Positions 49,151 through 64,000 of a DNA stretch of 64,000 bases are shown piece after piece. The number at the start of each line of letters is the position of its first letter. The stretch's first letter is position 1. The stretch covers positions 3,410,001-3,474,000 of the forward strand of contig CP043652.1 of NCBI GenBank assembly GCA_014218215.1. Direction: 5' to 3'. Source of the stretch: Geodermatophilaceae bacterium NBWT11. GTDB lineage: Bacteria; Actinomycetota; Actinomycetes; Mycobacteriales; Geodermatophilaceae. The position numbers were made by a program, and so were the translations under genes. The notes below the pieces were generated by a model. That model was not told the origin of the DNA and ran no database searches. It saw nothing but the letters and a program-made list of their open reading frames with translations.

Positions 49151-50116
49151 GTGAGCTTCTTCTCCGACGTCGAACGCGACCTCGTCGTGGCCGACCGCAC
49201 GCTGCTGGCCGACGGCGTGGTGGCCCTGGACCTCCGGTCGCACAACGGCCGCGACCTGCCCGCCTGGACCCCCGGTTCGCACCTGGACGTGCTGCTGCGC
49301 CCCGGCCTGGAACGGCAGTACTCGCTGTGCAGCGACCCCGCCGACCGCTCCCACTGGCGCATCGCGGTGCTCCGCGAGGCCGACGGCGGCGGCGGGTCGC
49401 TGGCCCTGCACGACGAGGTGGCGGTGGGCGACCGGCTGCGCATCCGCGGGCCGCGCAACCACTTCGCCTTCGAGGTCACCCCCGGCACCCGCTACCGGTT
49501 CGTCGCCGGCGGCATCGGCATCACCCCGCTGCTCGCGATGGTCACCGCGGCCGAGGCGGCGGGGGCCGACTGGGAGCTGGACTACGCCGGGCGGTCCCGG
49601 TCCTCGATGGCCTTCGCCGACGAGCTGGTCACCGCGCACCCCGACCGGGTCCGGCTGCACGCGGCCGACGAGGGCTCCCGGCTGGTCGTGGACACCCTGC
49701 TGGAGACCCCGCCGGCCGACACCGCCGTCTACGTGTGCGGCCCGACGAAGCTGCTGGACGCCGTCGAGGCCGCCGGTGCGGAGTGGCCGGCCGGCACGCT
49801 GCACGTCGAGCGGTTCGAGGCCAAGGAGTTCGGCGCCCCGGTGTGGCCCGGTGCCTTCGAGGTGGAGCTGGCGCTGACGGGGGAGACGGTGACGGTGGAG
49901 CCGGGCACCTCGGTGCTGGACGCCGTGGCCGGGGCGGGCGCCGTGGTGCTGTCCTCCTGCCGGGTGGGCACCTGCGGCACCTGCGAGACCCCGGTGCTGG
50001 AGGGCGCGGTCGAGCACCGCGACTCGGTGCTCAGCCCCGGCGAGCAGGCCGAGGACACGATGATGATGGTCTGCGTGTCCCGGGCGGCCGGCCCGCGCCT
50101 GGTGCTGGACCTCTGA
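49151..50116 (+). CDS. VanB-type (phthalate dioxygenase reductase) ferredoxin reductase
   Basis: 321 residues: flavin-binding domain with RQYSLCSDP near residue 57, NAD domain with FVAGGIGITPLLAMV near 118 and YVCGPTKLLDAV near 195, and C-terminal [2Fe-2S] ferredoxin with SSCRVGTCGTCETPV near 275. This is the electron supply of a two-component Rieske oxygenase; the only Rieske oxygenase in the window is at 59491-60567, 10 kb away in the same locus, so pairing is likely. Its stop overlaps the likely CTG start of the next gene. Confidence 0.9.
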   Translation: MSFFSDVERDLVVADRTLLADGVVALDLRSHNGRDLPAWTPGSHLDVLLRPGLERQYSLCSDPADRSHWRIAVLREADGGGGSLALHDEVAVGDRLRIRGPRNHFAFEVTPGTRYRFVAGGIGITPLLAMVTAAEAAGADWELDYAGRSRSSMAFADELVTAHPDRVRLHAADEGSRLVVDTLLETPPADTAVYVCGPTKLLDAVEAAGAEWPAGTLHVERFEAKEFGAPVWPGAFEVELALTGETVTVEPGTSVLDAVAGAGAVVLSSCRVGTCGTCETPVLEGAVEHRDSVLSPGEQAEDTMMMVCVSRAAGPRLVLDL

Positions 50117-51123
50117 GCGCGCCCGCGGGCGCCCCGGCCTGCCCGAAGGCGATGACCTTCGGGCCCTGCGGCGGGGTCACCGACGACGGCGGCTGCGAGG
50201 TGGGGCACGGGCCGTGCGCCTTCCTGCCCGTGCCGACCGTCCGGTGGCCCGGGGCGGCCCGGCCCCGCACCGGACCCGAACCGCACCTGCTCGCCCTCAT
50301 GCGCCAACGGCCGGTGGTGGTCGCCGACCTCCCCGCCGTCGCGCTCGACCGGGACTCCCTGGAGCGGGCCGCCGACCGGGTCGTCGGCCACGTCGACGCG
50401 GTGCTGCTCGGGGACCACGGGGCTGCCCGGGTGCAGTTCTCCCCGACCTACCGGGCCTCGCTCGTGCAGGCCCGCGGCCTGCCGGTGTGGCAGGGGCTGA
50501 ACTGCCGGGACCGCAACCGGGTGGCCCTGGAGGGCGAGCTCGCCGGGCTGGCCGACCTGGGCGTGGGCGCCGTGCACTGCGTGACCGGCGACCACACCGC
50601 GACCGGTGACCGGCCCGACGCCCAGCCGGTCTTCGACCTGGACTCCACCCAGCTGGCCGCCGCCGCCCGGGCCGCCGGGGTGCTGGTGTCGGTGGGGGAG
50701 ACCCCGCACGGACCACCGGCCGAGCGCCGACCGCACCGGCTGGTGGAGAAGGTGCGGGCCGGTGCCGACGTCTGCTTCGTCAACCACGCCGGCTCGGTCG
50801 AGGCACTGCGCTCCTTCGTCGAGCGGGCCACCGACGCCGGCGCCGACGTCCCCTTCGTGGCCTGCGTCGCGGTGGCGCTGGACCCCGGCTCGGCCGACCA
50901 GCTGCGCCGGTTCACCAGCCTCCGGCTGCCCGCGGGCCACCTGGCCGGCATCGAGTCCGCCCGCGACCCCCGCCGGGCCGGCATCGCCGCGGCCATCGCG
51001 CTCGCCGAGTCCTACCTGTCGGTCCCGGGGGTGCGCGGCGTCGACCTGTCCGGCGTCCCCACGCCCGGCGCCGAACTGACCACCGCCACGGCCCTGGCCG
51101 AGATCGGACGCGCTCTCACGTGA
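50113..51123 (+). CDS. Methylenetetrahydrofolate reductase-like protein with N-terminal Cys motif
   Basis: About 336 residues. It begins with CPKAMTFGPCGGVTDDGGCE (residues about 10-29), the end signature of the MTHFR C-terminal zinc-binding domain of corrinoid-system reductases. A TIM-barrel like MetF follows (GLNCRDRNRVALEGEL near 137, VHCVTGDHT near 155, PVFDLDSTQL near 177). The only start that keeps the Cys motif is CTG 50113, overlapping the previous stop as CTGA; the first canonical start, ATG 50152, would cut into it. Probably moves a one-carbon unit between oxidation states on folate. Confidence 0.75.
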   Translation: MSAPAGAPACPKAMTFGPCGGVTDDGGCEVGHGPCAFLPVPTVRWPGAARPRTGPEPHLLALMRQRPVVVADLPAVALDRDSLERAADRVVGHVDAVLLGDHGAARVQFSPTYRASLVQARGLPVWQGLNCRDRNRVALEGELAGLADLGVGAVHCVTGDHTATGDRPDAQPVFDLDSTQLAAAARAAGVLVSVGETPHGPPAERRPHRLVEKVRAGADVCFVNHAGSVEALRSFVERATDAGADVPFVACVAVALDPGSADQLRRFTSLRLPAGHLAGIESARDPRRAGIAAAIALAESYLSVPGVRGVDLSGVPTPGAELTTATALAEIGRALT

Positions 51124-52361
51124 CTCTCCTGCTCCAGTCGGTCACCGACCTCGACGGTCGGTTCCTCGACGTCCGGATCGACGGGGCCACCGTCGCCGAC
51201 GTCGCCCCCGCCGGCACGCTGGCCCCCCGGCCGGACGACGAGGTGCACGACCTCGCCGGGCACCACCTGCTGCCCGCCCCGGCCGAGCCGCACGCGCACC
51301 TGGACAAGGCGCTGACCAGCCACCGAGCGCCCAACGCCACCGGCGACCTGGCCGGGGCGATCGTCGCCATCCGGCAGATCAGCGAGGGCTTCACCCACGG
51401 GGACCTCGTCGACCGGGCCACCCGGGCGGCGTACGAGTACCTGGCCAACGGGACGACGGCGATCCGCACGCACGCCGACGTCGGGGCGCACGCGGGCACC
51501 CGGCACGCCCGTGCGCTCGTCGAGGTCCGCGAGGCCCTGGCCGGGCTCGTCGACGTGCAGGTGGTGGCCCTGGCCAGCGCGCCGTGGGCGCCGGGGGAGG
51601 CCGAGCTCAACGCCCGGCTGCTCGAGGAGGCCGTCGACCTGGGCGTGGACCTGGTCGGCGGGGCACCGCACATGTGGGCCGACCGGGCGGCCGGGCTCGA
51701 CCTGTCCTTCGGGGTCGCGCAGCGCCGCGGGCTGCCGCTGGACCTGCACACCGACGAGACGCTGGACCCCACCGCGCAGGGCCTGCTGCACCTGGCCCAG
51801 CGGGTGCGGTCCACCGGGTTCGCCCACGGCGCCACGGCCAGCCACTGCGTCTCCCTGGGCGTGCACCCGCTCGACGTCGCGCGGGCCACCGCCGCCGAGG
51901 TCGCCGCGGCCGGGGTCGGCGTCGTCGCGCTGCCGCAGACCAACCTGTACCTGCAGGGCCGGGACGCACCGGTGGCGACCCCGCGCGGGCTGACCGCCGT
52001 CCGCGCGCTGCTCGAGGCCGGGGCCACGGTCGGTGCCGGCGGGGACAACCTGCGCGACCCGTTCAACCCGATGGGCCGGGCCGACGCCACCGAGGCCGCC
52101 TCGCTGCTGGTCACCTCCGGTCACCTGTCCACCCGGGAGGCGTGGGACGCGGTGTCGGCCGGGGCCCGCCGGTGCATGGGGCTGCCCGTGCCGGCGGTCG
52201 CGGTCGGGGCCGCGGCGGAGTTCGTGGCGATCGCCGCGGAGAGCCTGGACGCCGCCGTCGCCGGCGCCGGCACCGCCCGGGTCGTGCTGTCCCGTGGCCG
52301 GGTCGTGGCCAGCACGCAGGTGCAGCGCGTGGTCACGGGGCGTGCCGTGTCCCAGTCGTGA
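51120..52361 (+). CDS. Cytosine deaminase-family amidohydrolase
   Basis: 413 residues with metal ligands EPHAHLDKAL near residue 57, LDLHTDET near 210, HGATASHCVSLG near 241 and GGDNLRDPFNPMG near 304, so an active metal site is expected. Family members deaminate or hydrolyse cytosine, creatinine, s-triazines or pterins; the substrate here is unknown. The GTG at 51120 overlaps the stop of the preceding gene (GTGA), so it is coupled to it, and the ABC transporter follows. Confidence 0.85.
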   Translation: MTLLLQSVTDLDGRFLDVRIDGATVADVAPAGTLAPRPDDEVHDLAGHHLLPAPAEPHAHLDKALTSHRAPNATGDLAGAIVAIRQISEGFTHGDLVDRATRAAYEYLANGTTAIRTHADVGAHAGTRHARALVEVREALAGLVDVQVVALASAPWAPGEAELNARLLEEAVDLGVDLVGGAPHMWADRAAGLDLSFGVAQRRGLPLDLHTDETLDPTAQGLLHLAQRVRSTGFAHGATASHCVSLGVHPLDVARATAAEVAAAGVGVVALPQTNLYLQGRDAPVATPRGLTAVRALLEAGATVGAGGDNLRDPFNPMGRADATEAASLLVTSGHLSTREAWDAVSAGARRCMGLPVPAVAVGAAAEFVAIAAESLDAAVAGAGTARVVLSRGRVVASTQVQRVVTGRAVSQS

Positions 52362-52478
52362 CGAACCGGTCGGCTGCGTTCACCGATGGCACACGCAGGC
52401 GAAACAGACCCACCGGAAGGTGACGTCGTCGGCCGGACACCCGGTCGAGCCACCGACACCGAGCCCCCGGAGGTGCCC

Positions 52479-53267
52479 GTGAGCGCACCCGCGCCCACCC
52501 TGTCGTCCGCCCGCCCCGCGACGGGCCAGCCCGGTGACCTGGTGCTGCGGTTCCGCGACGTCGCCAAGGCCTTCCCCGACGGCACCGTCGCGCTGGAGGG
52601 CGTCGACCTCGACGTCCGCCGCGGCGACTTCGTCACCGTCGTCGGCCCCTCGGGCTGCGGGAAGTCGACGCTGCTGCGGATCGCGTCGGGGCTGTCCCCG
52701 GCCACCGCCGGCACCTCCCAGGTCGACGCCGAGCGGATCGGGTACGTCTTCCAGGACGCCACGCTGCTGCCCTGGCGCAGCGTGAAGAAGAACGTGGAGC
52801 TGCTCGCCGAGCTGCACGGGATGAGCAAGACCGCCACGAACCAGGCCGCCATGGACGCCATCGAGCTGGTCGGCCTGCGCGGGCACGAGAAGAAGCTCCC
52901 GCGGGCGCTGTCGGGCGGCATGAAGATGCGCGCCTCGCTGGCCCGCTCGCTGACCCTGGACCCCGACCTCTTCCTCTTCGACGAGCCCTTCGGTGCCCTG
53001 GACGAGATCACCCGCGAACGCCTCAACGACGAGCTGATCCGGCTCTTCGCGGCCAAGGGCTTCGGCGCGCTGTTCATCACCCACTCGGTCAGCGAGGCCG
53101 TCTACATGTCGACCAAGGTGCTGGTCATGTCCGGCCGGCCGGGCCACATCGTGGAGTCCTTCGACGTCCCGTTCGGCCCCGAGCGCACCCCCGAGCTGCG
53201 CTTCACCCCGGAGTTCGCCGCGCTGGCCGGCGAGGTCTCCCACGCCCTCCGCGAGGGCCACTCGTGA
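52479..53267 (+). CDS. NitT/TauT-type ABC transporter, ATP-binding subunit
   Basis: 262 residues. Walker A GPSGCGKST near residue 58, Q-loop YVFQDATLLPW near 90, signature LSGGMKMRASLARSL near 143, Walker B LFLFDEPFGALDE near 165 and an H-loop (FITHSVSEAVY) near 198. GTG 52479 is chosen because GGAGGTG precedes it; ATG 52386 would add 31 Pro/Glu-rich residues. Overlaps the permease start by 4 bases. Confidence 0.92.
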   Translation: MSAPAPTLSSARPATGQPGDLVLRFRDVAKAFPDGTVALEGVDLDVRRGDFVTVVGPSGCGKSTLLRIASGLSPATAGTSQVDAERIGYVFQDATLLPWRSVKKNVELLAELHGMSKTATNQAAMDAIELVGLRGHEKKLPRALSGGMKMRASLARSLTLDPDLFLFDEPFGALDEITRERLNDELIRLFAAKGFGALFITHSVSEAVYMSTKVLVMSGRPGHIVESFDVPFGPERTPELRFTPEFAALAGEVSHALREGHS

Positions 53268-54187
53268 CCACCACCGCGCACCCTGCCGAGGAGACCCTCG
53301 TGACCACCACGGTCGACACCCCGCCCGCCGCGCCGACCGCGGACCCGGTGCTCACCGGCGCCGGCACCGCGCCCCTGGTCAAGCGCCGCGGCAAGGGCCG
53401 CAAGCGGGTCACCGACTCCCTGCTGCCGATCGCGGTCTTCCTGGGCCTGATAGCCGTCTGGTACGCCATCACCTACCTGGTGCTGGACCCCAACCGGCGC
53501 TTCCTCATGCCCGCCCCGCACACGATCGTCACCGACGCCCTGTTCGACGGCCCGACGATGGACAAGATCCTCCCGGCGCTGGGCCGGTCGATCGTGGTGA
53601 CCTTCACCGGCCTGGCGATCGCGATCGTCATCGGCATGGTCTGGGCGATCGCCATGAGCCAGAGCCGGCCGATCGAGCGTTCGCTGTTCCCCTACGCGGT
53701 CGCCCTGCAGTGCATCCCGATCCTCGCCCTGGTGCCGCTGATCGGGTTCTGGTTCGGCTACGACTTCCCGTCCCGGGTGATCGTCTGCGTGATGATCGCG
53801 CTGTTCCCGATCGTGTCGAACACGCTGTTCGGCATCCAGTCGGTGGACCGCGGCATGCACGAGCTGTTCACCCTGCACAACGCCAGCCGGACGACGCGGC
53901 TGCTCAAGCTGGAGCTCCCGGCCGCCATGCCGGCCATCTTCGCCGGCTTCCGGATCTCCGCCGGGCTGTCGGTGGTGGGCGCGATCGTGGGCGACCTGTT
54001 CTTCAAGCAGGGCGACCCCGGGCTGGGGATCCTGCTGGACAACTTCCGCGCCCGGCTCCAGGGCCAGGAGCTCTTCCTCACGATCATCATCACCGCGGCC
54101 CTCGGGTTCGCCGTCTTCGGCCTCTTCGGCTGGCTGGCCAAGGTCGCCGTCGGGCGCTGGTACGACCAGTCCCGCGACGCCGGCTGA
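53264..54187 (+). CDS. NitT/TauT-type ABC transporter, permease
   Basis: 307 residues; a 45-residue basic/Pro-rich cytoplasmic start, then six membrane segments with the permease EAA loop LELPAAMPAIFAGFRISAGLSVVGAIVGDLFF near residue 220. The GTG at 53264 overlaps the ATPase stop. Members of the family import nitrate, taurine, sulfonates, pyrimidine precursors and similar small compounds; the ligand is not predictable. Confidence 0.92.
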   Translation: MTTTAHPAEETLVTTTVDTPPAAPTADPVLTGAGTAPLVKRRGKGRKRVTDSLLPIAVFLGLIAVWYAITYLVLDPNRRFLMPAPHTIVTDALFDGPTMDKILPALGRSIVVTFTGLAIAIVIGMVWAIAMSQSRPIERSLFPYAVALQCIPILALVPLIGFWFGYDFPSRVIVCVMIALFPIVSNTLFGIQSVDRGMHELFTLHNASRTTRLLKLELPAAMPAIFAGFRISAGLSVVGAIVGDLFFKQGDPGLGILLDNFRARLQGQELFLTIIITAALGFAVFGLFGWLAKVAVGRWYDQSRDAG

Positions 54188-54358
54188 CGCACCCCCCTCC
54201 ACGCCCGACCCGGAGCCACCCCCGGTGGCCCCGGTGGTCGGTGCTGTCCAGCACCACCCGCACCACCCCCGCACCACCGGGTCCGCGCACCGCCGCCGGC
54301 CCCGACACGACCCCCCGATCCTGAGGGGCCGTGCCTCTCCCCACCCCTAGGAGCACGT

Positions 54359-55531
54359 GTGCGCATCACCCGGACCACGTCGGCCCTCGCGGCCACGACC
54401 GTGCTGGCCCTCTCCCTCGCCGCGTGCGGCGGTGGCGACAGCGACACCGCCTCGGCCGGCCCCTCGGGCGAGGTCGGCGCCAACGACCTCTCCGACGTCT
54501 GCCCGGCCAACGTCGTCGTCCAGACCGACTGGAACCCCGAGGCCGAGCACGGGGGCCTCTACGAGTCCCTCGGTGACGACTACGTGGTCGACGCCGGCAG
54601 CAAGATCGTCAGCGGCACCCTCATCGACTCCGAGGGCGAGAGCACCGGCGTCACCCTGGAGATCCGGGCCGGCGGCCCCGCCATCGGCTTCCAGACCGTG
54701 ACGGCGCAGATGTACACCGACACCGACATCAACCTGGGCTACATCGCCACCGACGAGGCCATCCAGCTCTCGGACACCCAGCCCACCACCGCGGTGCTGG
54801 CCCCGCTGGAGATCTCCCCGACCATGATCATGTGGGACCCGGAGACCTACCCCGACGTCACCTCCATCGAGGACCTCGGTGCCGCCGGCACCACGGTGCG
54901 CTACTTCGAGGGCTCGGCCTACATGGCCTACCTCACCGGTGCCGGCATCCTGAACGCCGACCAGGTCGACGGCTCCTACGACGGCACCCCGGCCGGCTTC
55001 GTCGCCGCCGCCGGTGAGGTCGCCCAGCAGGGCTTCGCCTCCGCCGAGCCCTACGTCTACGAGAACGAGGTCGAGGCCTGGGGCCGGGCGGTGGACTACC
55101 AGCTCGTCTACGACGCCGGTTTCCAGCCCTACCAGTCCTCCATCTCGGTCCGCTCGGACGACCTGGACGGCATGAGCGACTGCCTCTCCGAGCTCGTCCC
55201 GCTCATGCAGCAGGCCGACGTGGACTACCTCGAGGACCCGGCTCGGGTGAACGACATCATCTTCGACCTGGTGGAGCAGTACGACACCGGCTGGGTCTAC
55301 ACCCAGGGCGTGGCCGACTACTCGGTGGAGACGCAGAAGGAGCTCGGTCTGGTCGGCAATGGCCCGGACGACACCCACGGCAACTTCGACACCGACCGCG
55401 TGGACACCCTGATCGAGCAGACGACGCCGATCTTCACCGAGCAGGGCACGCCCCCGCTGGACGGCATCACCGCCGACGACCTCGTCACCAACGAGTTCAT
55501 CGACGACTCCATCGGCGTCCCCGCCAGCTGA
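54359..55531 (+). CDS. ABC transporter substrate-binding lipoprotein
   Basis: 390 residues: signal peptide with lipobox LSLAAC ending at Cys about 22, then an NMT1/THI5/SsuA-like two-lobe fold (VVVQTDWNPEAEHGGLYESLG near 51, GYIATDEAIQLSDTQPTTAVLAP near 125, STKYFEGSAYM-like VRYFEGSAYM near 180). Precedes an amidase by 117 bases. Two acidic patches and Trp/Tyr residues at lobe edges suggest a polar heterocyclic ligand, but this is a guess. GTG 54359 follows AGGAG. Confidence 0.9.
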   Translation: MRITRTTSALAATTVLALSLAACGGGDSDTASAGPSGEVGANDLSDVCPANVVVQTDWNPEAEHGGLYESLGDDYVVDAGSKIVSGTLIDSEGESTGVTLEIRAGGPAIGFQTVTAQMYTDTDINLGYIATDEAIQLSDTQPTTAVLAPLEISPTMIMWDPETYPDVTSIEDLGAAGTTVRYFEGSAYMAYLTGAGILNADQVDGSYDGTPAGFVAAAGEVAQQGFASAEPYVYENEVEAWGRAVDYQLVYDAGFQPYQSSISVRSDDLDGMSDCLSELVPLMQQADVDYLEDPARVNDIIFDLVEQYDTGWVYTQGVADYSVETQKELGLVGNGPDDTHGNFDTDRVDTLIEQTTPIFTEQGTPPLDGITADDLVTNEFIDDSIGVPAS

Positions 55532-55547
55532 CCCCCCCCCGGACGAC

Positions 55548-55588
55548 AAGCGCCCTTCTCGTCAGCCCCGCTGACGAGAAGGGCGCTT
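55548..55588. terminator. Perfect 19-bp stem-loop with nested repeats
   Basis: Arms 55548-55566 and 55570-55588 pair without mismatch around a 3-base CCC loop. The right arm plus following bases also forms its own hairpin, ACGAGAAG (55574-55581) with CTTCTCGT (55586-55593), so alternative folds exist. It lies 17 bases past the substrate-binding protein stop and 60 bases before the amidase; probably a terminator or attenuator. Confidence 0.85.
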
Positions 55589-55648
55589 CTCGTCGGGTAC
55601 GGCCCCGCCAGCGACCGGTCACGACCCGGGAGCCCCCCGGAGACAGGA

Positions 55649-57085
55649 GTGAGCGTGCAGACCGATGCGGCCGTCCTCGGCGACATCGACGTGGACACCC
55701 TCGCCGACGGGACGACGATGCTGGCCGCCCTGGCGGCCGGCGAGGTGTCCGCGGTCGAGCTGGTCCGGGCGCACCTGGACCGGATCGCCGGGCCGGGGGC
55801 CGCGCTGAACGCCGTCGTCGTGGTCGACGCCGACGGCGCGCTGGCCGCGGCCGCCCGGATCGACGCCGACCGGGCCGCCGGCCGGCCGCTGGGCCCGCTG
55901 GCCGGGTTGCCGATCACGGTCAAGGACTCCGTCGACGCGCTCGGGTTGCCCACCTCGCACGGCCGGGCCGAGGACCGGCGGGTCGCGGCCTCCGACGCCC
56001 CGAGCGTGCGGCGGCTGCGGGACGCCGGGTGCGTGGTCCTCGGCAAGACCAACGTGCCGGTGTGGCTGGCCAGCATGCACAGCGAGAACGAGCTGTTCGG
56101 CGCCACGTTCAACCCGTGGGACCTCGCGCGGTCCAGCGGCGGGTCCAGCGGTGGGTCCTCGGCCGCGGTGGCCGCCGGGCTGGCGGTGGCCGACCTGGGT
56201 AGCGACCTGGCCGGGTCGCTGCGGGTTCCGGCGGCCTGGTGCGGGCTCTTCGGGCACCGGCCCAGCAACGGCGCGGTGTCCAAGCTGGGCAACATGCCCT
56301 GGCCCGACGGCGGGCTGCTCGAGCCGATGGTGTCCGCGATCGGGCCGTTCGCCCGGTCGGCGGCGGACACCGAGCTGTTCAGCGAGGTGCTGTTCGGGGC
56401 CGAGGGGCTCGACGCGGTGGGCTGGCAGCTGCGGCTGCCCCCGGCCCGGGTCACCGACCTGGCCGGCACCCGGGTCGCGGTCTGGACCGAGGACCCCGTG
56501 CTGCCCGTCGACCCCGAGGTGCGGACGGCGGTCCGCGCCTTCGCCGACCGGCTGGCCGACGCCGGCGCCCGGGTCACCGAGCTGACCGCGCCCCCGGTGA
56601 GCGGGGCCGAGGACCTCGCGCTGTACCACCGGTTGCAGGCGGCCGAGGTGGTGCACGGCTTCTCGGCGCAGGACCTCGCCGACGCCCCCGCGCAGTACCA
56701 CCAGTCGGTGTGGGCGGCGCTGCGCGACCTGGAGTCCGCGCGAGCGGCGACCGCGCGGTGGGCGCAGGTGTTCGGCGGGGTCGACGTCGTCCTGTGCCCG
56801 GCGGTGTCCCGCGCCGCCACGGCCTACACCGCCGACCGGAAGGCCCCGGAGTCCGTCGAGGTCGACGGCCGCACGCTGCCGATCGACACCGTCTGCGACT
56901 GGGCGCGGATGTCCAGCCTGGGCCGGCTGCCGGCCACCGTCGTCCCGCTCGGACCTGGCGCCGACAGCGGCCTGCCCGTCGGGGCGCAGCTGCTGGGCGC
57001 CTATCTGGAGGACCGCACCCCGCTGGCCGTCGCCCGCCTGGCCGAGGAGGCGGGGCTGGTCAGCTTCGAAAGTCCGCCTTCCTGA
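55649..57085 (+). CDS. Amidase-signature amidase
   Basis: 478 residues. Catalytic triad visible: Lys in LPITVKDSVD near residue 92, cis-Ser in the SSGGSSGGSSAAVAAG stretch near 170, and nucleophile Ser in DLGSDLAGSLRVPA near 191. Closest to aryl-acylamidase or urethanase-type amidases; releases ammonia or an amine. Its last 26 bases overlap the end of the convergent formamidase gene. Probably belongs to the locus it sits in; GTG 55649. Confidence 0.88.
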   Translation: MSVQTDAAVLGDIDVDTLADGTTMLAALAAGEVSAVELVRAHLDRIAGPGAALNAVVVVDADGALAAAARIDADRAAGRPLGPLAGLPITVKDSVDALGLPTSHGRAEDRRVAASDAPSVRRLRDAGCVVLGKTNVPVWLASMHSENELFGATFNPWDLARSSGGSSGGSSAAVAAGLAVADLGSDLAGSLRVPAAWCGLFGHRPSNGAVSKLGNMPWPDGGLLEPMVSAIGPFARSAADTELFSEVLFGAEGLDAVGWQLRLPPARVTDLAGTRVAVWTEDPVLPVDPEVRTAVRAFADRLADAGARVTELTAPPVSGAEDLALYHRLQAAEVVHGFSAQDLADAPAQYHQSVWAALRDLESARAATARWAQVFGGVDVVLCPAVSRAATAYTADRKAPESVEVDGRTLPIDTVCDWARMSSLGRLPATVVPLGPGADSGLPVGAQLLGAYLEDRTPLAVARLAEEAGLVSFESPPS

Positions 57086-58130
57086 TGGTGGCGTGCACGC
57101 CCTTGACCACGTCGACGACCTGGCTGATCCGGAAGTCCGTGGCCGCCGAGAGGTAGGCGTAGGCCAGGGAGGCGTCCATCCCGAAGGCGGCCTGCAGCAG
57201 TGCGACGGCGGCGCGGACGCAGTCGGCCACCGCCGCGTCGAGGTCCTTGTCCAGCCCGGTGGGCACCAGGAACTCAGCCGTCTCCGCGAGCGGACCGGCG
57301 AGCTCGCCGAACCGGGCGAGGGCGTCCTCCCGCGGCACCACGTCGAACCGGACGGTGGCCCGCAGGCTGGCCTCCATGGCAGTGAGGGACACCTCGCCGT
57401 CGCCCTGGGCGAAGTGCGGGTCGCCCACGTAGGCCAGTGCCCCGTCGACCTGCACCGGGAGGTACAGCGTGCTGCCGGTCGTCAGCAGGGCGATGTCCAG
57501 GTTCCCGCCGTGCCGCCCCGGCGGGACCGAGTGCGGCCGATCAGGGCCGGGGACGGCGACGCCCATGATCCCCAGGAACGGGCGCAGCGGGAACCGCACC
57601 GTGGGCGGCGCGCCGGGGGTGAGCGGCAGCAGCCCGTGGCCGCCGTCCGCGGACACCGCGGCGAACGCGCTGAACACCGGGGCGCCGCCCAACGGGTGCT
57701 CCCCGGCCAGCGCGCCCTTGCCGTGCCGGTTGGAGATGACGCCGTAGGGCACCCGCGGCGTCGTGTCGAGCACGGTCATCGCCAGCAGGTCGCCGACCCG
57801 GGCGCCGTGCACCGCGACCGGGCGGCTCACCACGTGCGGGCCGTCGACGCCGAACGCGTGCGGGTGCGCGCTCGCGGCCAGGGCCACGGCGTCCTCGAGC
57901 ACCTCGGTCACCCCGTGCCGGCCGAAGAACGCGGCCGGGTCGCGGCCCTGGTCCTCCAGGACACCCTCGTGGCTGACCGTGTCCAGGGTGACCGCCGTCC
58001 CGGGCTCGACGGTGAGCACCGGCTCGTCCGCCGCGCACGGCAGCCTGCCCCAGAGGACGTGCTCGGGGGTCGAGGGCAGGTAGGTGTCGGCCGCGATCGG
58101 CCCGCGCCCGGGCTGGAGGACCGCCGTCAC
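57060..58130 (-). CDS. Acetamidase/formamidase family protein
   Basis: 356 residues of the FmdA/AmdA fold: VEPGTAVTLDTVSHEGV near residue 43, ARVGDLLAMTVLD near 111, PPGRHGGNLDI near 211 and VGDPHFAQGDGEVS near 240. Members cleave formamide or acetamide to acid and ammonia. The GTG at 58130 overlaps the stop of the upstream amidohydrolase; the end overlaps the convergent amidase by 26 bases. Fits a role in the last amide step. Confidence 0.88.
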   Translation of the reverse strand: MTAVLQPGRGPIAADTYLPSTPEHVLWGRLPCAADEPVLTVEPGTAVTLDTVSHEGVLEDQGRDPAAFFGRHGVTEVLEDAVALAASAHPHAFGVDGPHVVSRPVAVHGARVGDLLAMTVLDTTPRVPYGVISNRHGKGALAGEHPLGGAPVFSAFAAVSADGGHGLLPLTPGAPPTVRFPLRPFLGIMGVAVPGPDRPHSVPPGRHGGNLDIALLTTGSTLYLPVQVDGALAYVGDPHFAQGDGEVSLTAMEASLRATVRFDVVPREDALARFGELAGPLAETAEFLVPTGLDKDLDAAVADCVRAAVALLQAAFGMDASLAYAYLSAATDFRISQVVDVVKGVHATIRKADFRS

Positions 58131-59491
58131 CGGGCCGCGACCTCCGCGGCCAGCCGGGCCATCCGCTCGTGCACCTGGTCGACCACCTCGTCGGCCTGCG
58201 GGTCGGTCAGCTCCGCGCCGTCGGCGACCATGCGCCCGCCCACCCAGACCGAACGCAGGTTGCGCAGCGAGCAGGCCAGCACGTAGGTGCCGACGGCGTC
58301 CCAGACCGGCCCGGTGTCGGGCCTGCGCGGGTCGACGACGCAGAAGTCGGCGAACCGGCCCACCCGCAGCGAGCCGACGTCGCCGTCCAGGCCCAGGGCC
58401 TCGGCACCGCCGCGGGTGTGCATCATCAGCACGTCGGCGACCGGGGCGGCCATCGGGTCCTTGTACTGCGCGCGGAGCATCGCGATGCCGGTGCGCATGT
58501 TGTTCCACGGGTCGGCGACGTCGGTGCAGGACTGGTCGTCCAGACCCATGCCGACCCGCATCCCGGCCGCCCGCAGCTCCGGGATCGACGCCACCCCGCT
58601 GGCCAGGCGGCCGTTGCTCATCGGCTGCCAGCTCATCCCGCACCCACCGGCCGCGGCGGCGGCGATGATCTCTGGCGTCGTCTGGATGAAGTGCCCGAAC
58701 ACCAGCTGCGGGGTCAGCGCCCCGGCCTCGGCGTACCAGGCGAACTTGGACCGCTGCAGGTCCAGCATCTCGGCGGTCTCCAGGAAGTGCGCCTGGTTGA
58801 CCAGCCCGTACCGCCGCATCACCTCGACCTCCAGGGCCGCGGTGTCCGGGGTCGGCGCCCACTGCACGGCGCCGCTGACCGCGACGCCCAGCAGCAGCGA
58901 GGGATCGGCGCCGGCCGTGGCCGCGACGGTGTCCTCGACGTGCGCCAGGGCGTCGGCCCGAGGGACGTCGCCCTGGGCCAGCATCACCGAGTGCAGGCTG
59001 CGCAGCCCGGCGTCCAGCTTCGCGCGCAGCTGCGCCTCCTGGCGGGCCACCGAGGGGATCCGGTCGCCGAAGCTGGCGATCGTCTTGTCGAACTGCAGCC
59101 CGCCGTCGGTGAAGTCGTAGGCGGTGGTGATCCCGTTGCGCAGGAAGTCCTGGGCGCCGTGCCGGGTGGACCAGTACATGTCCTCCGGGGTGGCCGGCAT
59201 GACGTAGCGCAGCATCGCCTCGATCCAGCCGTACAGCGTCTCGTCCATGCCCAGCCCGCGGCTGCCCGAGGTGAACAGGTGGCTGTGCGCGCTGACGAAC
59301 CCCGGTCCGATCAGGGTGCCGGTGGCGTCGAGCACCTCGTCGGCGGCGGCGAGCTGCTCCGGGGTCGGCGTCCCCGGCTCGACGTCGGTGAGCCGGCCGT
59401 CGGCGCCGACGGCGAACCAGCCGACGAACGGCGCCGGGCGGTCGGGGTCGACGGTGAGCAGGGTGGCGCCGTGCACGAGCAGGGTGGTCAT
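58127..59491 (-). CDS. TRZ/ATZ-family amidohydrolase
   Basis: 454 residues. All family ligands present: SAHSHLF near residue 70, VNQAHFLETAE near 222, VFGHFIQT near 259 and GMGLDDQSC near 314, so an active hydrolase is expected. The closest branches are chlorohydrolases and 5-methylthioadenosine/guanine-type deaminases. ATG 59491 shares its base A with the Rieske gene's stop (TGATG), showing tight coupling. Confidence 0.87.
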   Translation of the reverse strand: MTTLLVHGATLLTVDPDRPAPFVGWFAVGADGRLTDVEPGTPTPEQLAAADEVLDATGTLIGPGFVSAHSHLFTSGSRGLGMDETLYGWIEAMLRYVMPATPEDMYWSTRHGAQDFLRNGITTAYDFTDGGLQFDKTIASFGDRIPSVARQEAQLRAKLDAGLRSLHSVMLAQGDVPRADALAHVEDTVAATAGADPSLLLGVAVSGAVQWAPTPDTAALEVEVMRRYGLVNQAHFLETAEMLDLQRSKFAWYAEAGALTPQLVFGHFIQTTPEIIAAAAAGGCGMSWQPMSNGRLASGVASIPELRAAGMRVGMGLDDQSCTDVADPWNNMRTGIAMLRAQYKDPMAAPVADVLMMHTRGGAEALGLDGDVGSLRVGRFADFCVVDPRRPDTGPVWDAVGTYVLACSLRNLRSVWVGGRMVADGAELTDPQADEVVDQVHERMARLAAEVAAR

Positions 59492-60567
59492 CAGGAGGCC
59501 TCCGGGGTCCACTGGCCGGTGACCAGTTCGGTGTACATGCGGCGCAGCAGCAGGCTGTTCTTGTCCGCCTTGGCGTGGGCGTTGAGGTGCTGGGCCAGCG
59601 GGAACGCGTCGGGCAGCCGGTCCAGCAGGTCCTTGTCCTCCAGCTCCACCTGGTGGTCGAAGGCGCGGATGTCGGCGGCCGGGCGGTCGGCCTCGGTGTC
59701 GGTGCGCAGCACCACCTGGTGGATCACGCAGCTGCGGTCGTCGACCGGGGTGATCGCCTTGAGCATCACGTGGCCCAGGCCGTCGGGGTAGCGGATGAGC
59801 AGGTGCATGAAGAACGGCAGGTGCACCTGGCTCCAGGTGTGCCGCACGGTGGAACCGGTCTCCCCGGGGCGGCCCTCGACCGGGACGTCGGTCCAGGTGA
59901 CGAGCCCGTACGGCGTCCGCTCGACGTTCTGGTCGGTCAGCTCGGGGTTGTCCGGGTTGCCGAAGGAGTTCCGGTGGACGAAGGCCACGTGCCCGGGGTC
60001 GATGTTGTTCTCCACCAGGTGCATGGCCGTGCAGTCGAAGTCCCAGGAGCCCTCGGGCACCTGGCGCCAGGCGGGGTCGTCCCACTCGGCCACGTGCGGG
60101 ACGTCGGCGATCGGGCCGCCCTCGTCCGCGCCGGCCAGGCAGACCCACACCAGCCCGTAGCGCTCGGTGCTGGCGACCATGGTCAGCCCGGACTTCGTGG
60201 GGTGCGGGGAGTCGGGGAACTGCGGGATCCGCCGGGTCGTGCCGTCGGCGTCCCACTCCCAGCCGTGGTAGGCGCAGACCAGGCGGCAGTCGGTCACCCA
60301 GCCCATCGACAGCGGGGCGTCGCGGTGCGCGCAGCGGTCGTGCGCGACGCTGACCGGTCCGTCGGGGTCGGGCCGCCAGACGACGAGGTCGGTGCCGAGC
60401 ACCCGGCGGTGCAGCGGGGCGGCGCCCCGTCGGCCGGGCTCGGGCTCGGTGCGCACGTCCTCGACGGCGCACACCACGTACCAGAACCGTCGGAAGACGG
60501 GGTGCTCGGAGAGCACGAGGTGGTCGGGTCCGGCGTGCCGGGTGGTGCGCTCCTGCAGTGCGGTCAT
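59491..60567 (-). CDS. Rieske non-heme iron oxygenase, VanA/pheophorbide oxygenase-like
   Basis: 358 residues. Rieske cluster ligands CAHRDAPL near residue 77 and CAYHGW near 94-97 (CxH...CxxH), then the mononuclear iron site VENNIDPGHVAFVH near 168-178 and a C-terminal Asp region. The DCTAMHLVENNIDPGHVAF segment is that of VanA-type demethylases. Electrons probably come from the reductase at 49151. It would demethylate or hydroxylate a small ring compound. First gene in the run Rieske, amidohydrolase, formamidase. Confidence 0.9.
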   Translation of the reverse strand: MTALQERTTRHAGPDHLVLSEHPVFRRFWYVVCAVEDVRTEPEPGRRGAAPLHRRVLGTDLVVWRPDPDGPVSVAHDRCAHRDAPLSMGWVTDCRLVCAYHGWEWDADGTTRRIPQFPDSPHPTKSGLTMVASTERYGLVWVCLAGADEGGPIADVPHVAEWDDPAWRQVPEGSWDFDCTAMHLVENNIDPGHVAFVHRNSFGNPDNPELTDQNVERTPYGLVTWTDVPVEGRPGETGSTVRHTWSQVHLPFFMHLLIRYPDGLGHVMLKAITPVDDRSCVIHQVVLRTDTEADRPAADIRAFDHQVELEDKDLLDRLPDAFPLAQHLNAHAKADKNSLLLRRMYTELVTGQWTPEAS

Positions 60568-60654
60568 GGGTCGTCGTCCTGGTCTCGCACGGGCCGCTCG
60601 CGCCGTTCGCGCGGCCCCGGGGGCACGCTGCCCGCCGCGGGTTGCGGTGCCGTT

Positions 60655-62220
60655 TCAGCCCCGTTGCACGTCCGCGAGGACGACGGCCGCGGCATTGCGG
60701 CCCGAGGCGCCCCACACGCCGGCGCCGGGGAAGGTGCCCGCGCCGGTGAGGTAGAGCCCGCGCACCGGGGTGGCGTACCGGGTGAGCTCGGGGTCCCGGC
60801 CGACGAGGGCGGCCAGCGGCCCGCCGGAGAAGGACGGCGCCCACCCCCGCGGCATGCCCAGGTCGCGCTCGTAGTCCTCGGGGGTGACCACCCGCCAGCG
60901 CCGCACACCGGCGGCGAACCCCGGGCCCACCTGGGCGGCCAGCAGGTCCAGCCACCGCTGCGGCTCGGCCGACGCGGCCCAGCCGCCGGGTACGGCGTAC
61001 GGCGTCCAGAGCACCTCGAGGGAGAGCACGTGGTCGGCACCGACGCGCATGGTCGGGTCGAGCACGGAGGGCGTGTTGACCAGCGCCATCGGCCGGGCAG
61101 CGACGGCACCGCTCGGCAGGGCGGCGTGCGCGGCCTCGACGGCGGCCAGGGACGGCGCCAGCGTCGTCGTCGGCACGTGTGGGTCGAACGGGCCGACCCG
61201 CTCCTGCAGGTCGTGGACCTGGGGGAACGCCGGGAGCGTGCCCACGACGGCGTCGAGCTTGGACTCGTAGCCGTCGGGCTGAGCCCGGTCGGTCCACCGC
61301 GCGACCATCGCCTCGGCCCCGGACGGCGGCTGCGGACCGAGCCAGTCGACGACGGTGGTGCGCGGGTCGATCGAGCTGACGACGACGTCGGCCGGGACCT
61401 CCTCGCCGCTGTCCAGCAGCACCCCGCGCACCCGCGGACCCTCCGCCAGCACGCGGACGACCCGGGCGCCGGTCCGGACGACGCCGCCGGCGGCCTCCAG
61501 CGCACCGCGCAGCGCCGTCGGCAGCGCACCGGAGCCGCCGACCGGGCGGCCGATCCCGACCAGGTGCCGCATCGCGATCCCGGTGGCACCCAGTCCGGTG
61601 CCCGGGGTCGACGGCGCGACGCCCCAGACCGCGGGCCCGGTGGTGAACGCGCCGGCCACCAGGAACTCGTCGGTGAGGTAGCGGCCGAGCACGTCGGCCA
61701 CGCTGCGCCGGGACCAGTCCAGCAGCCGGGGGAGCGCGAGCGCCTTGCGGTCGGCCAGCTTCCGCAGCACCCGGCCGGGGGTGGGCGGGGTGGAGGTGAG
61801 CTCGACCAGCAGCCGGGCCACCGGGGTGGCGTCGGCCAGGTAGCGCCGGTAGCCGGCGACCTGGGTGGGGTGGGTGACCGCGAGGGCGTCCAGGGTGCGC
61901 TCGGCATCCCGGAACTGCACGAACGCCGGGCCCGCGGCGTCGTCCCAGCCCACGTGCAGGGCCTGCGGGTCGACGTCGAGGTAGGCCAGGCCGTGCGCGG
62001 CGAGGTCCAGCTCGTCGGCGATGGTCGTCGTCCGGACCATCGTGTGGTCGCAGTTGCAGGTGTTGACCCGGGCGCCGTCCAGCGCGTCGACGGTCGCCGC
62101 GCAGCCGCCGGTCTCGGAACCGGCCTCCAGCACGGTGACCGCCAGCCCGGCCCGGGCCAGGTACGCCGCGCAGACCAGCCCGTTGTGACCGCCGCCGACC
62201 ACCACCACCACCGTCGTCAT
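60655..62220 (-). CDS. FAD-dependent oxidoreductase, phytoene desaturase-like
   Basis: 521 residues with FAD motif VVVVGGGHNGLVCAAYLARAG near residue 5-25 and the GGxxxT...H segment of the amine oxidase/phytoene desaturase superfamily (GGCAATVDALDG near 40). C-terminal GLYLTGAGTFPGAGVWGASGRNAA near 488 is the family FAD-contact tail. The start ATG 62220 is 105 bases below the longest reading frame and is preferred because it precedes the FAD motif directly. Likely oxidises a heterocycle or acts in the same transcript as the Rieske gene. Confidence 0.85.
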   Translation of the reverse strand: MTTVVVVVGGGHNGLVCAAYLARAGLAVTVLEAGSETGGCAATVDALDGARVNTCNCDHTMVRTTTIADELDLAAHGLAYLDVDPQALHVGWDDAAGPAFVQFRDAERTLDALAVTHPTQVAGYRRYLADATPVARLLVELTSTPPTPGRVLRKLADRKALALPRLLDWSRRSVADVLGRYLTDEFLVAGAFTTGPAVWGVAPSTPGTGLGATGIAMRHLVGIGRPVGGSGALPTALRGALEAAGGVVRTGARVVRVLAEGPRVRGVLLDSGEEVPADVVVSSIDPRTTVVDWLGPQPPSGAEAMVARWTDRAQPDGYESKLDAVVGTLPAFPQVHDLQERVGPFDPHVPTTTLAPSLAAVEAAHAALPSGAVAARPMALVNTPSVLDPTMRVGADHVLSLEVLWTPYAVPGGWAASAEPQRWLDLLAAQVGPGFAAGVRRWRVVTPEDYERDLGMPRGWAPSFSGGPLAALVGRDPELTRYATPVRGLYLTGAGTFPGAGVWGASGRNAAAVVLADVQRG

Positions 62221-62285
62221 GACCGCACTGTCGCCCGCGACCGTGACGGAGGCGTTACGGCCGACGCTCGTCCTCCGCCACCACC

Positions 62286-62325
62286 GTGCGTCCTCCTCCA
62301 CCGACGTCGGTGGAGGAGGACGCAC
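62286..62325. repeat. Perfect 40-bp palindrome, likely terminator
   Basis: Two 20-base arms with no mismatch and no loop, meeting at ACGT (the left arm ends CTCCTCCACCGAC). It lies 18 bases past the stop of the amidohydrolase and 65 bases before the FAD oxidoreductase start, on their coding strand. Extra pairs flank it (62280-62283 with 62328-62331). Folds as a long hairpin in RNA. Confidence 0.9.
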
Positions 62326-62343
62326 GATGGTCGTCGGAGCTGA

Positions 62344-63642
62344 TCAACGCCGGCGGGCGGTGAGCAGGGTGGTGAGCTCGCGGACGACGTCGGACTCGTC
62401 GCGGGCGACCAGCCGGCCGTCCCGGACCACCACCCGGCCACCCACCACCACGTGCCTGGGCCGTCGGCCGGGGGAGGCCCACAGCAGTCCGGCGACGGGG
62501 TCGGCCACCCCGGCATCGGCGACCCCGGTCACGTCCCAGCAGACGAGGTCGGCCCGGGCGCCCACCTCGAGGCGGCCCAGGTCGGGTCGGCCCAGCCCGT
62601 CGGCCGAGCCGCTGGTGGCCCAGCCCAGGACCTCGCGGGCGCTCACCGGCCGGCCGACCAGCGGGGCGACCTGCATCGCCAACCGGGCGTCGGCGAGCAG
62701 GTGCCCGGCGTCGTTGGACCCGCCGCCGCTGGTGCCCAGCCCGACCGTCACTCCGGCGTCGGCCAGCGCGGCGACCGGGGCGATGCCCCAGCCCATCGGC
62801 AGGTCGCAGCCGGGCGCGTGGGTGGCGGTGACGCCCGTCGCGGCCAGCCGGGCGACCTCGGCGTCGGTGACCTCGCACAGGTGGGCCAGCGTGACGTCGG
62901 GGGCCAGCCAGCCCCACTCGTCCAGCAGCTGCAGGGGCCGCCGGCCGTACCGCTCGACCGCGATCGCCACGTCGACCTGCTCGTTCGCCTGGGTGCGCCG
63001 GCGCAGCCCGCGAGCGGCAGCGACCTCGGCCATCAGCCGGAAGGTCTCGGGGGAGTCCGAGTGCACGCCGGCCGGGCCCACGGCGACCTGGACGACGCCG
63101 TCCTCGGTCACGCCGTCGCCCCCGACCCCGGAGTGCGGCACCAGGGCCGCGGCGATCGCGTCGGCCGAGGCGGCGGCGGTCTCGGCGTCGTCCCGTGCGC
63201 TGCCGCGGACGAACGCCACCCGGGCGCCGAGCTCACGGGCCGCCGTCGCGGTGGCCGAGGCGATGCCCACCCCGCCGTCGGTGAGCGTGGGCCAGGTCAG
63301 GTGGTGGTCGGCGACCGTGGTCACCCCGCACAGGAGGGCCTCGGCGAGCCCGGCCGACGCGGCGGCGTGCGCCAGCTCGGCGTCCACCCCGACCGCGGCG
63401 TAGGCCGCCGCCATCGTCGGCAGCCACTGCGCCATCGGCACACCCCGGGTGGCCGGCAGCGTGCGGAAGGCGGTCTGCAGCAGGTGGTGGTGGGCGTTGA
63501 CCAGACCCGGGGTGACGACGCAGCCGGTCGCGTCGAGCACCTCGCCCCCGGACGTCGCCCCGAACCGGCCGTCGTCCCCGCAGGTGAGGTCCCCGGTCCC
63601 GTCCTGCCCCAGCACGGCCACGGCTCCTCGCACGGTCAGCAT
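62344..63642 (-). CDS. 8-oxoguanine deaminase-like amidohydrolase lacking expected ligands
   Basis: 432 residues. N-terminal PGLVNAHHHLLQTAFRTLPATRG near residue 50 matches the 8-oxoguanine/isoxanthopterin/hydroxyatrazine deaminase branch, and VTLAHLCEVTDAEVARL near 245 keeps one metal His. But the usual HTHLAE stretch reads RTQANE near 215, and the usual catalytic Asp (VDGSASND) reads TSGGGSND near 300. Two core metal/catalytic residues therefore appear replaced, so activity is doubtful or changed. Reading frame is intact. ATG 63642. Confidence 0.8.
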   Translation of the reverse strand: MLTVRGAVAVLGQDGTGDLTCGDDGRFGATSGGEVLDATGCVVTPGLVNAHHHLLQTAFRTLPATRGVPMAQWLPTMAAAYAAVGVDAELAHAAASAGLAEALLCGVTTVADHHLTWPTLTDGGVGIASATATAARELGARVAFVRGSARDDAETAAASADAIAAALVPHSGVGGDGVTEDGVVQVAVGPAGVHSDSPETFRLMAEVAAARGLRRRTQANEQVDVAIAVERYGRRPLQLLDEWGWLAPDVTLAHLCEVTDAEVARLAATGVTATHAPGCDLPMGWGIAPVAALADAGVTVGLGTSGGGSNDAGHLLADARLAMQVAPLVGRPVSAREVLGWATSGSADGLGRPDLGRLEVGARADLVCWDVTGVADAGVADPVAGLLWASPGRRPRHVVVGGRVVVRDGRLVARDESDVVRELTTLLTARRR

Positions 63643-63734
63643 GCGGCGACCCTGGCAGCCCCGTGTTCCGCCCAGGTGACAGCTGGAACGCCGCCGTCAC
63701 CGGCGCGCAACGACCCGCCCCTAGCGTCCGCCGG
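63643..63734. promoter_or_regulatory. Divergent promoter region, amidohydrolase / creatininase-family
   Basis: 92-bp spacer. GTTCC (63665-63669) and GGAAC (63685-63689) form an inverted repeat around a CAGGTGACAGCTG core, a possible operator. A TAGCGT -10-like hexamer at 63722-63727 sits 7 bases before the GTG at 63735, fitting a leaderless transcript. Confidence 0.4.
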
Positions 63735-64000
63735 GTGACCGTCCGACTGCTCACCGAGCTCTCCGCCCCCGCCATCGCCGACGCGCTCGGCCCGGACTCG
63801 GTGCTCGTGCTGCCGACCGGTGCCATCGAGCAGCACGGCCCGCACCTGCCGGTCGCGACCGACCTCATCACCGCGCAGAGCATGGCCGAGCTGGCCGTCG
63901 CGGAGTTCGGCGAGGAGCTCGACCTGTGGCTGCTGCCGCCGCTGGCCTACACCAAGAGCAACGAGCACCACTGGAGCTGCGGCACGTTCTGGCTCTCCGC
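63735..64000 (+). CDS. Creatininase-family amidohydrolase, truncated by the window end
   Basis: 88 residues readable. The motif PTGAIEQHGPHLPVATDLITAQ near residues 27-48 carries the metal-binding Glu and His of the creatininase family, with NEHHWSCGTFWLS near 76 a likely second binding stretch. The family includes creatinine amidohydrolase and formamide-releasing hydrolases of flavin and pterin pathways. Divergent from the amidohydrolase at 63642 and presumably in the same locus. GTG 63735 is chosen; the gene continues past the window. Confidence 0.8.
   Translation, partial: MTVRLLTELSAPAIADALGPDSVLVLPTGAIEQHGPHLPVATDLITAQSMAELAVAEFGEELDLWLLPPLAYTKSNEHHWSCGTFWLS

What the first reader, a model, noticed from the sequence alone, without database searches (positions are those of the whole stretch)
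49151..64000. Undescribed-looking catabolic locus: ABC import, Rieske demethylase, folate enzyme and five hydrolases
About 15 kb encodes a NitT/TauT importer, a Rieske oxygenase with a separate VanB-type reductase, an MTHFR-like enzyme, three cytosine-deaminase/TRZ-type amidohydrolases, an amidase, a formamidase, a flavin oxidoreductase and a creatininase-family protein. Together they suit uptake and stepwise breakdown of a methylated N-heterocycle, with the methyl carbon going to folate and nitrogen released as ammonia. I know of no described pathway with this exact set.
Basis: inference. Interest (0 to 1): 0.85.

Follow-up and report, generated by a model that had tools for sequence, protein, structure and literature searches.

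The report
Candidate folate-ring breakdown gene cluster
A soil actinobacterium carries a conserved set of about nineteen genes that most likely imports and dismantles a folate- or pterin-like vitamin ring as a nitrogen source, a kind of pathway that is still poorly mapped in bacteria.

Summary
It is a real unit. A genome of another family has a compact version. A six-gene core (creatininase-like, three ABC parts, cytosine-deaminase-like hydrolase, FAD oxidase) recurs in 6 of 6 proteobacterial plasmid contexts read, of 134 matching records.

"Rieske demethylase feeding folate" is not supported. The MTHFR-like and reductase genes occur without this Rieske in many genomes, and the Rieske scores nearer the xanthine hydroxylase HpxD (159 bits) than NdmA (122). 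In 35 genomes the Rieske and one xanthine-dehydrogenase type never co-occur (14 versus 11; phylogeny-confounded).

The parts
47129..47722 (-). PNPOx-like flavin protein (197 aa)
   Evidence: Pfam PNPOx_N and PNP_phzG_C; 4-base overlap with the FAD oxidase; kept beside it in G113
47719..49059 (-).
49151..50116 (+). PDR/VanB-type reductase (321 aa)
   Evidence: Pfam Fer2, NAD_binding_1, FAD_binding_6; 40% to HpxE, 55-60% to two paralogs in the same genome
50113..51123 (+). MTHFR-like protein with N-terminal MetV-type Cys motif (up to 336 aa; start uncertain, CTG at 50113 or ATG at 50152)
   Evidence: Pfam MTHFR 37 bits; DUF5981 21.7 bits, under its cut-off of 23; alignment of 13 sequences
51120..52361 (+). 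cytosine-deaminase/AtzC-like amidohydrolase AH1 (413 aa), core gene
   Evidence: NCBIfam PRK07583 222 bits, under its cut-off of 403; PDB cytosine deaminase 128 bits; 33 sequences aligned
52386..53267 (+). ABC ATPase, core gene (start 52386 or 52542)
53264..54187 (+). ABC permease, core gene
   Evidence: Pfam BPD_transp_1
54359..55531 (+). substrate-binding lipoprotein of a diverged NMT1/THI5-like family, core gene
   Evidence: 21 sequences aligned; no Pfam match over cut-off, no solved relative; Rhizobium counterpart, 25% identical, is PF09084
55649..57085 (+). amidase AMI1 (478 aa); at 50% identity or more seen only in five sister Klenkia loci
   Evidence: Pfam Amidase
57060..58130 (-). acetamidase/formamidase family protein (356 aa)
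   Evidence: Pfam FmdA_AmdA 115 bits
58127..59491 (-). amidohydrolase AH2 (454 aa)
   Evidence: Pfam Amidohydro_1; closest solved 3hpa
59491..60567 (-). Rieske oxygenase (358 aa), catalytic motifs intact by eye
   Evidence: Pfam Rieske and VanA_C; HpxD 33%, 159 bits
60655..62220 (-). CrtI/CrtO-like FAD oxidoreductase (521 aa)
   Evidence: NCBIfam CrtO 205 bits, under its cut-off of 1000
62344..63642 (-). TRZ/8-oxoguanine-deaminase-like amidohydrolase AH3 (432 aa), with unusual metal-site residues
   Evidence: NCBIfam PRK08203 269 bits and PRK12393 219 bits, both under their cut-offs; TrzN 233 bits; 16 sequences aligned
63735..64000 (+). creatininase-family protein, core gene; runs on to 64514 (L009:735-1514). 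Beyond the window follow SDR (64511-65266), RutB/BiuH-like hydrolase (65263-66003), cupin (66012-66449) and HpxZ/AtzH-amidase fusion (66446-68017)

Best explanation
The locus (47129 to about 68017) is a catabolic island for a folate- or pterin-type ring, a 2-amino-4-oxo pteridine with the same pyrimidine half as guanine. Proposed flow, all steps inferred: the ABC system takes up the compound; AH1 (and AH3/AH2) remove the exocyclic amine or a later amine; the Rieske enzyme, or in other lineages a molybdenum hydroxylase, adds oxygen to the ring; the FAD oxidase (6v42-like flavin oxygenase) oxidises it; the creatininase-like enzyme opens a cyclic amide; the RutB/BiuH-like hydrolase, cupin, HpxZ-amidase fusion, amidase and formamidase cut the ureide and formamide leftovers to ammonia and small acids. 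The MTHFR-like protein, coupled to the reductase and AH1, would act on a folate form (for instance 5-methyl- or dihydro-forms that need a redox change before breakdown) rather than as a sink for a demethylated carbon. Shown: gene content, coupling, conservation, co-occurrence and the fold match. Inferred: substrate, order and every reaction.
Against: The folate link of 6v42 is only an entry title; identity is 28%; its paper, organism and gene context were not seen. The MTHFR-like gene misses the canonical MTHFR model badly (19.8 bits, cut-off 293.7) and is absent at E<=1e-25 from 8 of the 22 FAD oxidase genomes, G158, G220 and G228 among them. No M20-type p-aminobenzoyl-glutamate hydrolase is among the locus genes. 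In Microbacteriaceae the MTHFR-like gene lies beside plain purine genes (36 of 48 loci in all), which fits purines as well. All six core families also fit other amino-oxo heterocycles.
Confidence: 0.5

Rival explanations
1. It is a purine locus: imports guanine-, isoguanine- or oxidised-purine-type bases, deaminates them, hydroxylates them with a molybdenum-free HpxD-like Rieske (or a xanthine dehydrogenase in other lineages), and breaks the products to ureides.
For: 36 of 48 loci with the MTHFR-like gene have xanthine dehydrogenase, uricase, allantoinase, allantoate amidohydrolase, PucG or OHCU decarboxylase relatives on the held flank. Rieske nearer HpxD than NdmA by bits. Rieske and XDH ortholog never together in 35 genomes. 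Proteobacterial xanthine-riboswitch operons carry the same gene types: tauA/NMT1, Rieske, PDR, DIOX_N, PRK12393 (PMC7373994, section 5); two of three sister Klenkia loci also hold a DIOX_N-type oxygenase. HpxZ-amidase fusion and a weak cupin match point to ureides. Three of 20 genomes searched, all with core genes, lack a uricase.
Against: G113 and the own genome keep a uricase elsewhere, and G113 a full XDH-uricase-allantoinase cluster. No purine gene on the flanks of the eight Klenkia, Goekera and Modestobacter loci. It gives no role to the MTHFR-like gene or the folate-type FAD oxidase. XDH/Rieske exclusion follows phylogeny.
Confidence: 0.28
2. One reading: an N-methylated heterocycle is demethylated by the Rieske, its methyl carbon captured by folate through the MTHFR-like enzyme.
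For: NdmA/NdmB are in the Rieske's wider family (122 and 92 bits). A MTHFR-like gene is in the locus. 6 of the 8 Rieske genomes among 296 have a MTHFR-like gene.
Against: MTHFR-like and reductase genes are kept without the Rieske. Where the Rieske is missing a Mo hydroxylase ortholog is often found instead (11 of 21 genomes). No formaldehyde-handling family among the locus genes. The MTHFR-like gene is tied to AH1 and the FAD oxidase instead.
Confidence: 0.1
3. An s-triazine, pyrimidine/hydantoin or creatinine-type pathway using look-alike hydrolases.
For: AH1 resembles AtzC and cytosine deaminase, AH3 TrzN, the isochorismatase-like gene RutB and biuret hydrolase. An AtzD-family gene exists 1.2 Mb away.
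Against: No cyanuric acid hydrolase, hydantoinase or sarcosine oxidase family among the locus genes. The creatininase-like protein is far below the creatininase model (98.6 bits, cut-off 235).
Confidence: 0.12

Closest known systems
6v42 flavin oxygenase (PDB title: involved in folate catabolism)
   Different: 28% identity; paper, organism and gene context not seen, so the rest of that pathway could not be compared
Klebsiella hpx purine genes (HpxD/HpxE and neighbours)
   Same: Rieske 33% and reductase 40% identical; HpxZ-type domain in the amidase fusion, 70 bits, under its cut-off of 135
   Different: No HpxO, HIU hydrolase, OHCU decarboxylase or nucleobase symporter among the locus genes; reductase and Rieske are not neighbours
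Proteobacterial xanthine-riboswitch (NMT1 motif) operons, PMC7373994
   Same: tauA/NMT1 transporter, Rieske, PDR reductase, PRK12393-like amidohydrolase, DIOX_N oxygenase (the last in sister Klenkia)
   Different: No riboswitch found; FAD oxidase, creatininase-like and MTHFR-like genes not named in the section read (section 5)
Caffeine N-demethylation ndmABCDE, PMC4408171 (passages)
   Same: Rieske of the wider family with a separate reductase
   Different: No NdmC, no NdmE, no reductase with extra Rieske cluster, no frmAB in the locus
Lumichrome (riboflavin) lum pathway, PMC12746152 (outline and passages)
   Same: Rieske, Mo hydroxylase-type step (in relatives) and several amidases for an N-heterocycle
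   Different: No P450, thiamin-dependent decarboxylase or catechol dioxygenase in the locus

Membership tests
Folate catabolism by a 6v42-type enzyme | flavin oxygenase homologous to 6v42 | tested here: met
Folate catabolism by a 6v42-type enzyme | activity on a folate or pterin | not testable with these tools
   needs enzyme assays
Folate catabolism by a 6v42-type enzyme | same gene neighbours as the solved enzyme | not tested
   its organism was not found
Six-gene core module (creatininase-like, SBP, ATPase, permease, AH1, FAD oxidase) | all six homologous and clustered | tested here: met
   6 of 6 proteobacterial contexts read, of 134 records; SBP only 22-25% identical
Klebsiella HpxDE xanthine hydroxylase | HpxD-type Rieske | tested here: inconclusive
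   33% over 315 aa, 159 bits; also 32-34% to two other Rieske proteins
Klebsiella HpxDE xanthine hydroxylase | hpxO, permease, uraD and uraH neighbours (as in L061) | tested here: not met
   none among the genes of 47129-68017
Caffeine N-demethylase (ndm) | NdmA/NdmB-type Rieske | tested here: inconclusive
   122 and 92 bits, below HpxD's 159 (another target set)
Caffeine N-demethylase (ndm) | reductase with an extra Rieske cluster, NdmC, NdmE, frmAB | tested here: not met
   reductase has no Rieske domain; none of the others among the locus genes
Canonical MTHFR | curated MTHFR model | tested here: not met
   TIGR00676 19.8 bits, cut-off 293.7
Xanthine-riboswitch regulon | NMT1-motif RNA upstream | tested here: not met
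   window, L009, L089 and L166 searched; only tRNAs at gathering score
Creatininase | curated creatininase model | tested here: not met
   98.6 bits, cut-off 235
s-Triazine pathway (atz) | cyanuric acid hydrolase with the cluster | tested here: not met
   the one PF09663 gene of the genome lies at 2254824, 1.2 Mb away

The most novel reading that the evidence does not exclude
A near-complete bacterial folate-breakdown island in which a MetV-MetF-like protein with its own 2Fe-2S reductase works as a catabolic enzyme on folate itself, and in which a Rieske oxygenase and a molybdenum hydroxylase are interchangeable ring-oxygenating steps; the six-gene core would be one shared vitamin- and base-salvaging module of actinobacteria and proteobacteria.
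Probability: 0.2. Interest if true: 0.8.

Novelty: new variant of a known kind. Interest (0 to 1): 0.6.

Why it matters
Folates and pterins are everywhere in soil and on leaves, yet I know of no full bacterial breakdown route with assigned genes (recalled; no such paper in the searches). If this island is one, it gives candidate genes for uptake, deamination, oxygenation and hydrolysis, explains a widespread 'cytosine deaminase / creatininase / FAD oxidase / NMT1 transporter' module now annotated only by domain names, and adds a second role for MTHFR-like proteins. If it is a purine island instead, it still shows a molybdenum-free oxygenase set in actinobacteria.

Tried and rejected
Rieske as demethylase feeding MTHFR: dropped on distribution. 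Rieske as plain replacement for xanthine dehydrogenase on xanthine: weakened, because the own genome and G113 keep a uricase, G113 with its own XDH cluster. Creatinine route: the creatininase-like protein is far from the creatininase model and no hydantoinase or sarcosine oxidase family is in the locus. s-Triazine: no cyanuric acid hydrolase in the locus, though one exists elsewhere in the genome. Lumichrome: lacks P450, decarboxylase and catechol dioxygenase. Riboswitch: none. Plasmid searches at strict cut-offs found nothing for FAD oxidase (1e-60), AH1 (1e-50) and AH3 (1e-60); the looser FAD oxidase search was the one that helped. The MTHFR-like gene gave one weak plasmid hit. Catalytic-residue check of the MTHFR-like protein: the Pfam match starts at profile position 51, so the N-terminal acid could not be tested; an Asp (position 72 of the protein as aligned) invariant in 13 of 13 sequences lies about where I recall the catalytic Glu. 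SBP and MTHFR-like structures: never run.
Full report
What is there. The window is positions 3410001-3474000 of a 4.59 Mb single-contig genome whose nearest named relatives are Klenkia species (MTHFR-like protein 81-95% identical in six Klenkia records). The unit is wider than 49151-64000. To the left, a PNPOx-like gene (47129) and an FAD oxidase gene (47719-49059) overlap each other and are conserved with the set; of the genes further left, OYE and LLM orthologs are seen in three of the six Klenkia loci (L013, L014, L016). To the right, outside the window, follow the rest of the creatininase gene, an SDR, a RutB/biuret-hydrolase-like gene, a cupin and an AtzH/HpxZ-amidase fusion, ending at about 68017; this right half is kept in all three sister Klenkia loci read there. 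Nine of the 18 neighbouring pairs overlap by 1-4 bases on the same strand.

Is it one unit? Yes, in layers. G113, a genome of another family of the class, holds creatininase-like, AH3-Rieske-AH2, SBP-permease-ATPase-AH1-MTHFR-reductase and FAD oxidase-PNPOx in about 13 kb. In four f20 genomes the order MTHFR-AH1-ATPase-permease-SBP-FAD oxidase is contiguous (4 of 4 read). In Microbacteriaceae, Cellulomonas and G231, G285 and G158 much of the set recurs without the Rieske. In Modestobacter it is split: reductase-FAD oxidase-PNPOx and the Rieske lie apart from the MTHFR-like gene's neighbours. Beyond actinobacteria, an FAD oxidase search of plasmids matched 134 records at E<=1e-20 (20 listed). 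I read six contexts (Rhizobium, Comamonadaceae, Alloyangia, Roseateles, Klebsiella, Palleronia), and all six hold homologs of creatininase-like, ATPase, permease, SBP, AH1 and FAD oxidase, plus an annotated RidA protein. Klebsiella also has the reductase (39%), and Rhizobium a Mo hydroxylase with XdhC.

Co-occurrence in a class sample of 296 genomes (cut-offs differ by query: Rieske 1e-50, MTHFR-like 1e-25, FAD oxidase 1e-70, AH3 1e-90). FAD oxidase 22, MTHFR-like 27, Rieske 8, AH3 5. All 8 Rieske genomes and all 5 AH3 genomes are among the 22 FAD oxidase genomes; FAD oxidase and MTHFR-like share 14. Naive hypergeometric values are 2e-10, 1e-6 and 1e-11; the samples are not independent, since family f20 alone gives 14 of the 22. 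Rieske and MTHFR-like share 6 (8e-6); Rieske and AH3 share 2 (0.006). So the Rieske goes with the FAD oxidase more than with AH3, and the MTHFR-like gene does not depend on the Rieske.

Rieske or molybdenum enzyme. I set out 35 genomes that hold the FAD oxidase or the MTHFR-AH1-ABC set (not every one had its context read) and were searched for both the Rieske and the Microbacteriaceae-type XDH. Rieske only: 14. XDH ortholog (at least 55%) only: 11. Both: 0. Neither: 10. Seven further genomes searched for the Rieske (G006, G007, G009, G010, G014, G015, G016) are left out because XDH was not searched there; none has a full-length Rieske match. Fisher p is 9e-4, ignoring phylogeny, and the split follows lineages. 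Other Mo hydroxylases (mostly 29-38% identical) occur in nearly all of these genomes, so the exclusion concerns this XDH type only. I read it as a hint that both enzymes add oxygen to a ring, which a Mo hydroxylase does, while I know of none that N-demethylates (general knowledge).

The Rieske itself. Motifs are intact by eye. Scores: HpxD 159 bits and a Variovorax Rieske 165 (its neighbours look by eye like an NMT1-type SBP and a deaminase); SxtDIOX 132, NdmA 122, NdmB 92. The two sets were scored against different databases, but bit scores compare. It is in the family of these enzymes and an ortholog of none. The reductase is 40% identical to HpxE, but two paralogs in the same genome at 55-60% lie beside another Rieske and, by eye, a P450, so identity alone does not name its partner.

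Results against this reading. 36 of the 48 MTHFR-like loci lie within reach of purine genes. The 12 without are eight Klenkia, Goekera and Modestobacter loci, Cellulomonas (L024), two short or partial loci (L026, L051) and a weak Hydrogenophaga match (L060). The canonical MTHFR model is missed by far. Eight of the 22 FAD oxidase genomes have no MTHFR-like gene at E<=1e-25; in two of them, G228 and G220, the core is there all the same. No p-aminobenzoyl-glutamate hydrolase family is in the locus. Uricase is missing at E<=1e-5 from 3 of 20 genomes (Cellulomonas and two Microbacterium), which could mean that the island replaces the uric acid route there.

Known systems. The set resembles the gene types of xanthine-riboswitch operons (PMC7373994, section 5 read): tauA/NMT1 transporter, Rieske, PDR, DIOX_N, PRK12393. 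Two of three sister Klenkia loci have a DIOX_N-type oxygenase between AH3 and the CrtI-like gene, 31-33% identical to one about 4 kb from hpxE in Klebsiella (Pfam for one of the two). No riboswitch is present in the four sources searched. PMC12625717 (passages) places biuret-hydrolase-like, GatA-like amidase and creatininase-like genes among purine-breakdown products in nitrifiers. Caffeine (PMC4408171, passages) and lumichrome (PMC12746152, outline and passages) pathways have parts that are missing here. HpxY as an oxalurate amidohydrolase is named in PMC12625717; the isoxanthopterin deaminase reading of 2paj is recalled.

Verdict. Real, coherent, conserved and probably a vitamin- or base-ring breakdown island. 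The methyl-to-folate mechanism is not supported; folate or pterin as the substrate itself is more likely (0.5), purine next (0.28). Novelty: a new variant of a known kind, because a solved relative is already tied by title to folate catabolism and the core is widespread.

Noticed in passing
62344-63642 (AH3) and its aligned orthologs: Where TRZ-type hydrolases usually have a metal-binding His and Asp (recalled), AH3 has Gln (RRRTQANE) and Ser (GTSGGGSND), kept in 95% or more of 16 aligned sequences. It may be mechanistically unusual.
   Followed up: partly
50113-50152: The MTHFR-like frame has no nearby ATG/GTG/TTG start that keeps the conserved CPK motif; a CTG overlaps the reductase stop.
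   Followed up: partly
L012 about 8945-10051; L173, L174, L175: A sister group of MTHFR-like proteins (42-46% identical) lies beside a SAM-dependent methyltransferase-like gene in 3 of 3 other genomes read and, by eye, in the own genome (Pfam for one).
   Followed up: partly
G000:C1:2242191-2255903 (L107 and beyond): Mo hydroxylase, nucleobase permease (by eye), CoA-ligase/FdrA-like and AllG genes, then an AtzD/barbiturase-family gene: perhaps a second nitrogen-heterocycle island in the same genome.
   Followed up: no
L090:14798-15820, L092:4622-5605: An IPNS-like 2-oxoglutarate oxygenase lies in two of three sister Klenkia loci and is absent from the window.
   Followed up: partly
46088-47113; L179:19013-20023: The LLM flavin monooxygenase just left of the locus is 60% identical to one a few kb from the core module in Alloyangia.
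   Followed up: no
L176: A Rhodococcus plasmid has the formamidase-like gene (69%) and an amidase like the fusion (43%) beside a monooxygenase I recognise as RutA-like (from memory), so this tail may also serve other ring pathways.
   Followed up: partly
L009:5858-5930: A tRNA gene lies about 0.8 kb right of the last locus gene, a possible insertion edge.
   Followed up: no
L108 (G113): The G113 purine cluster also holds an AH1 paralog next to a different Rieske (404 aa).
   Followed up: no
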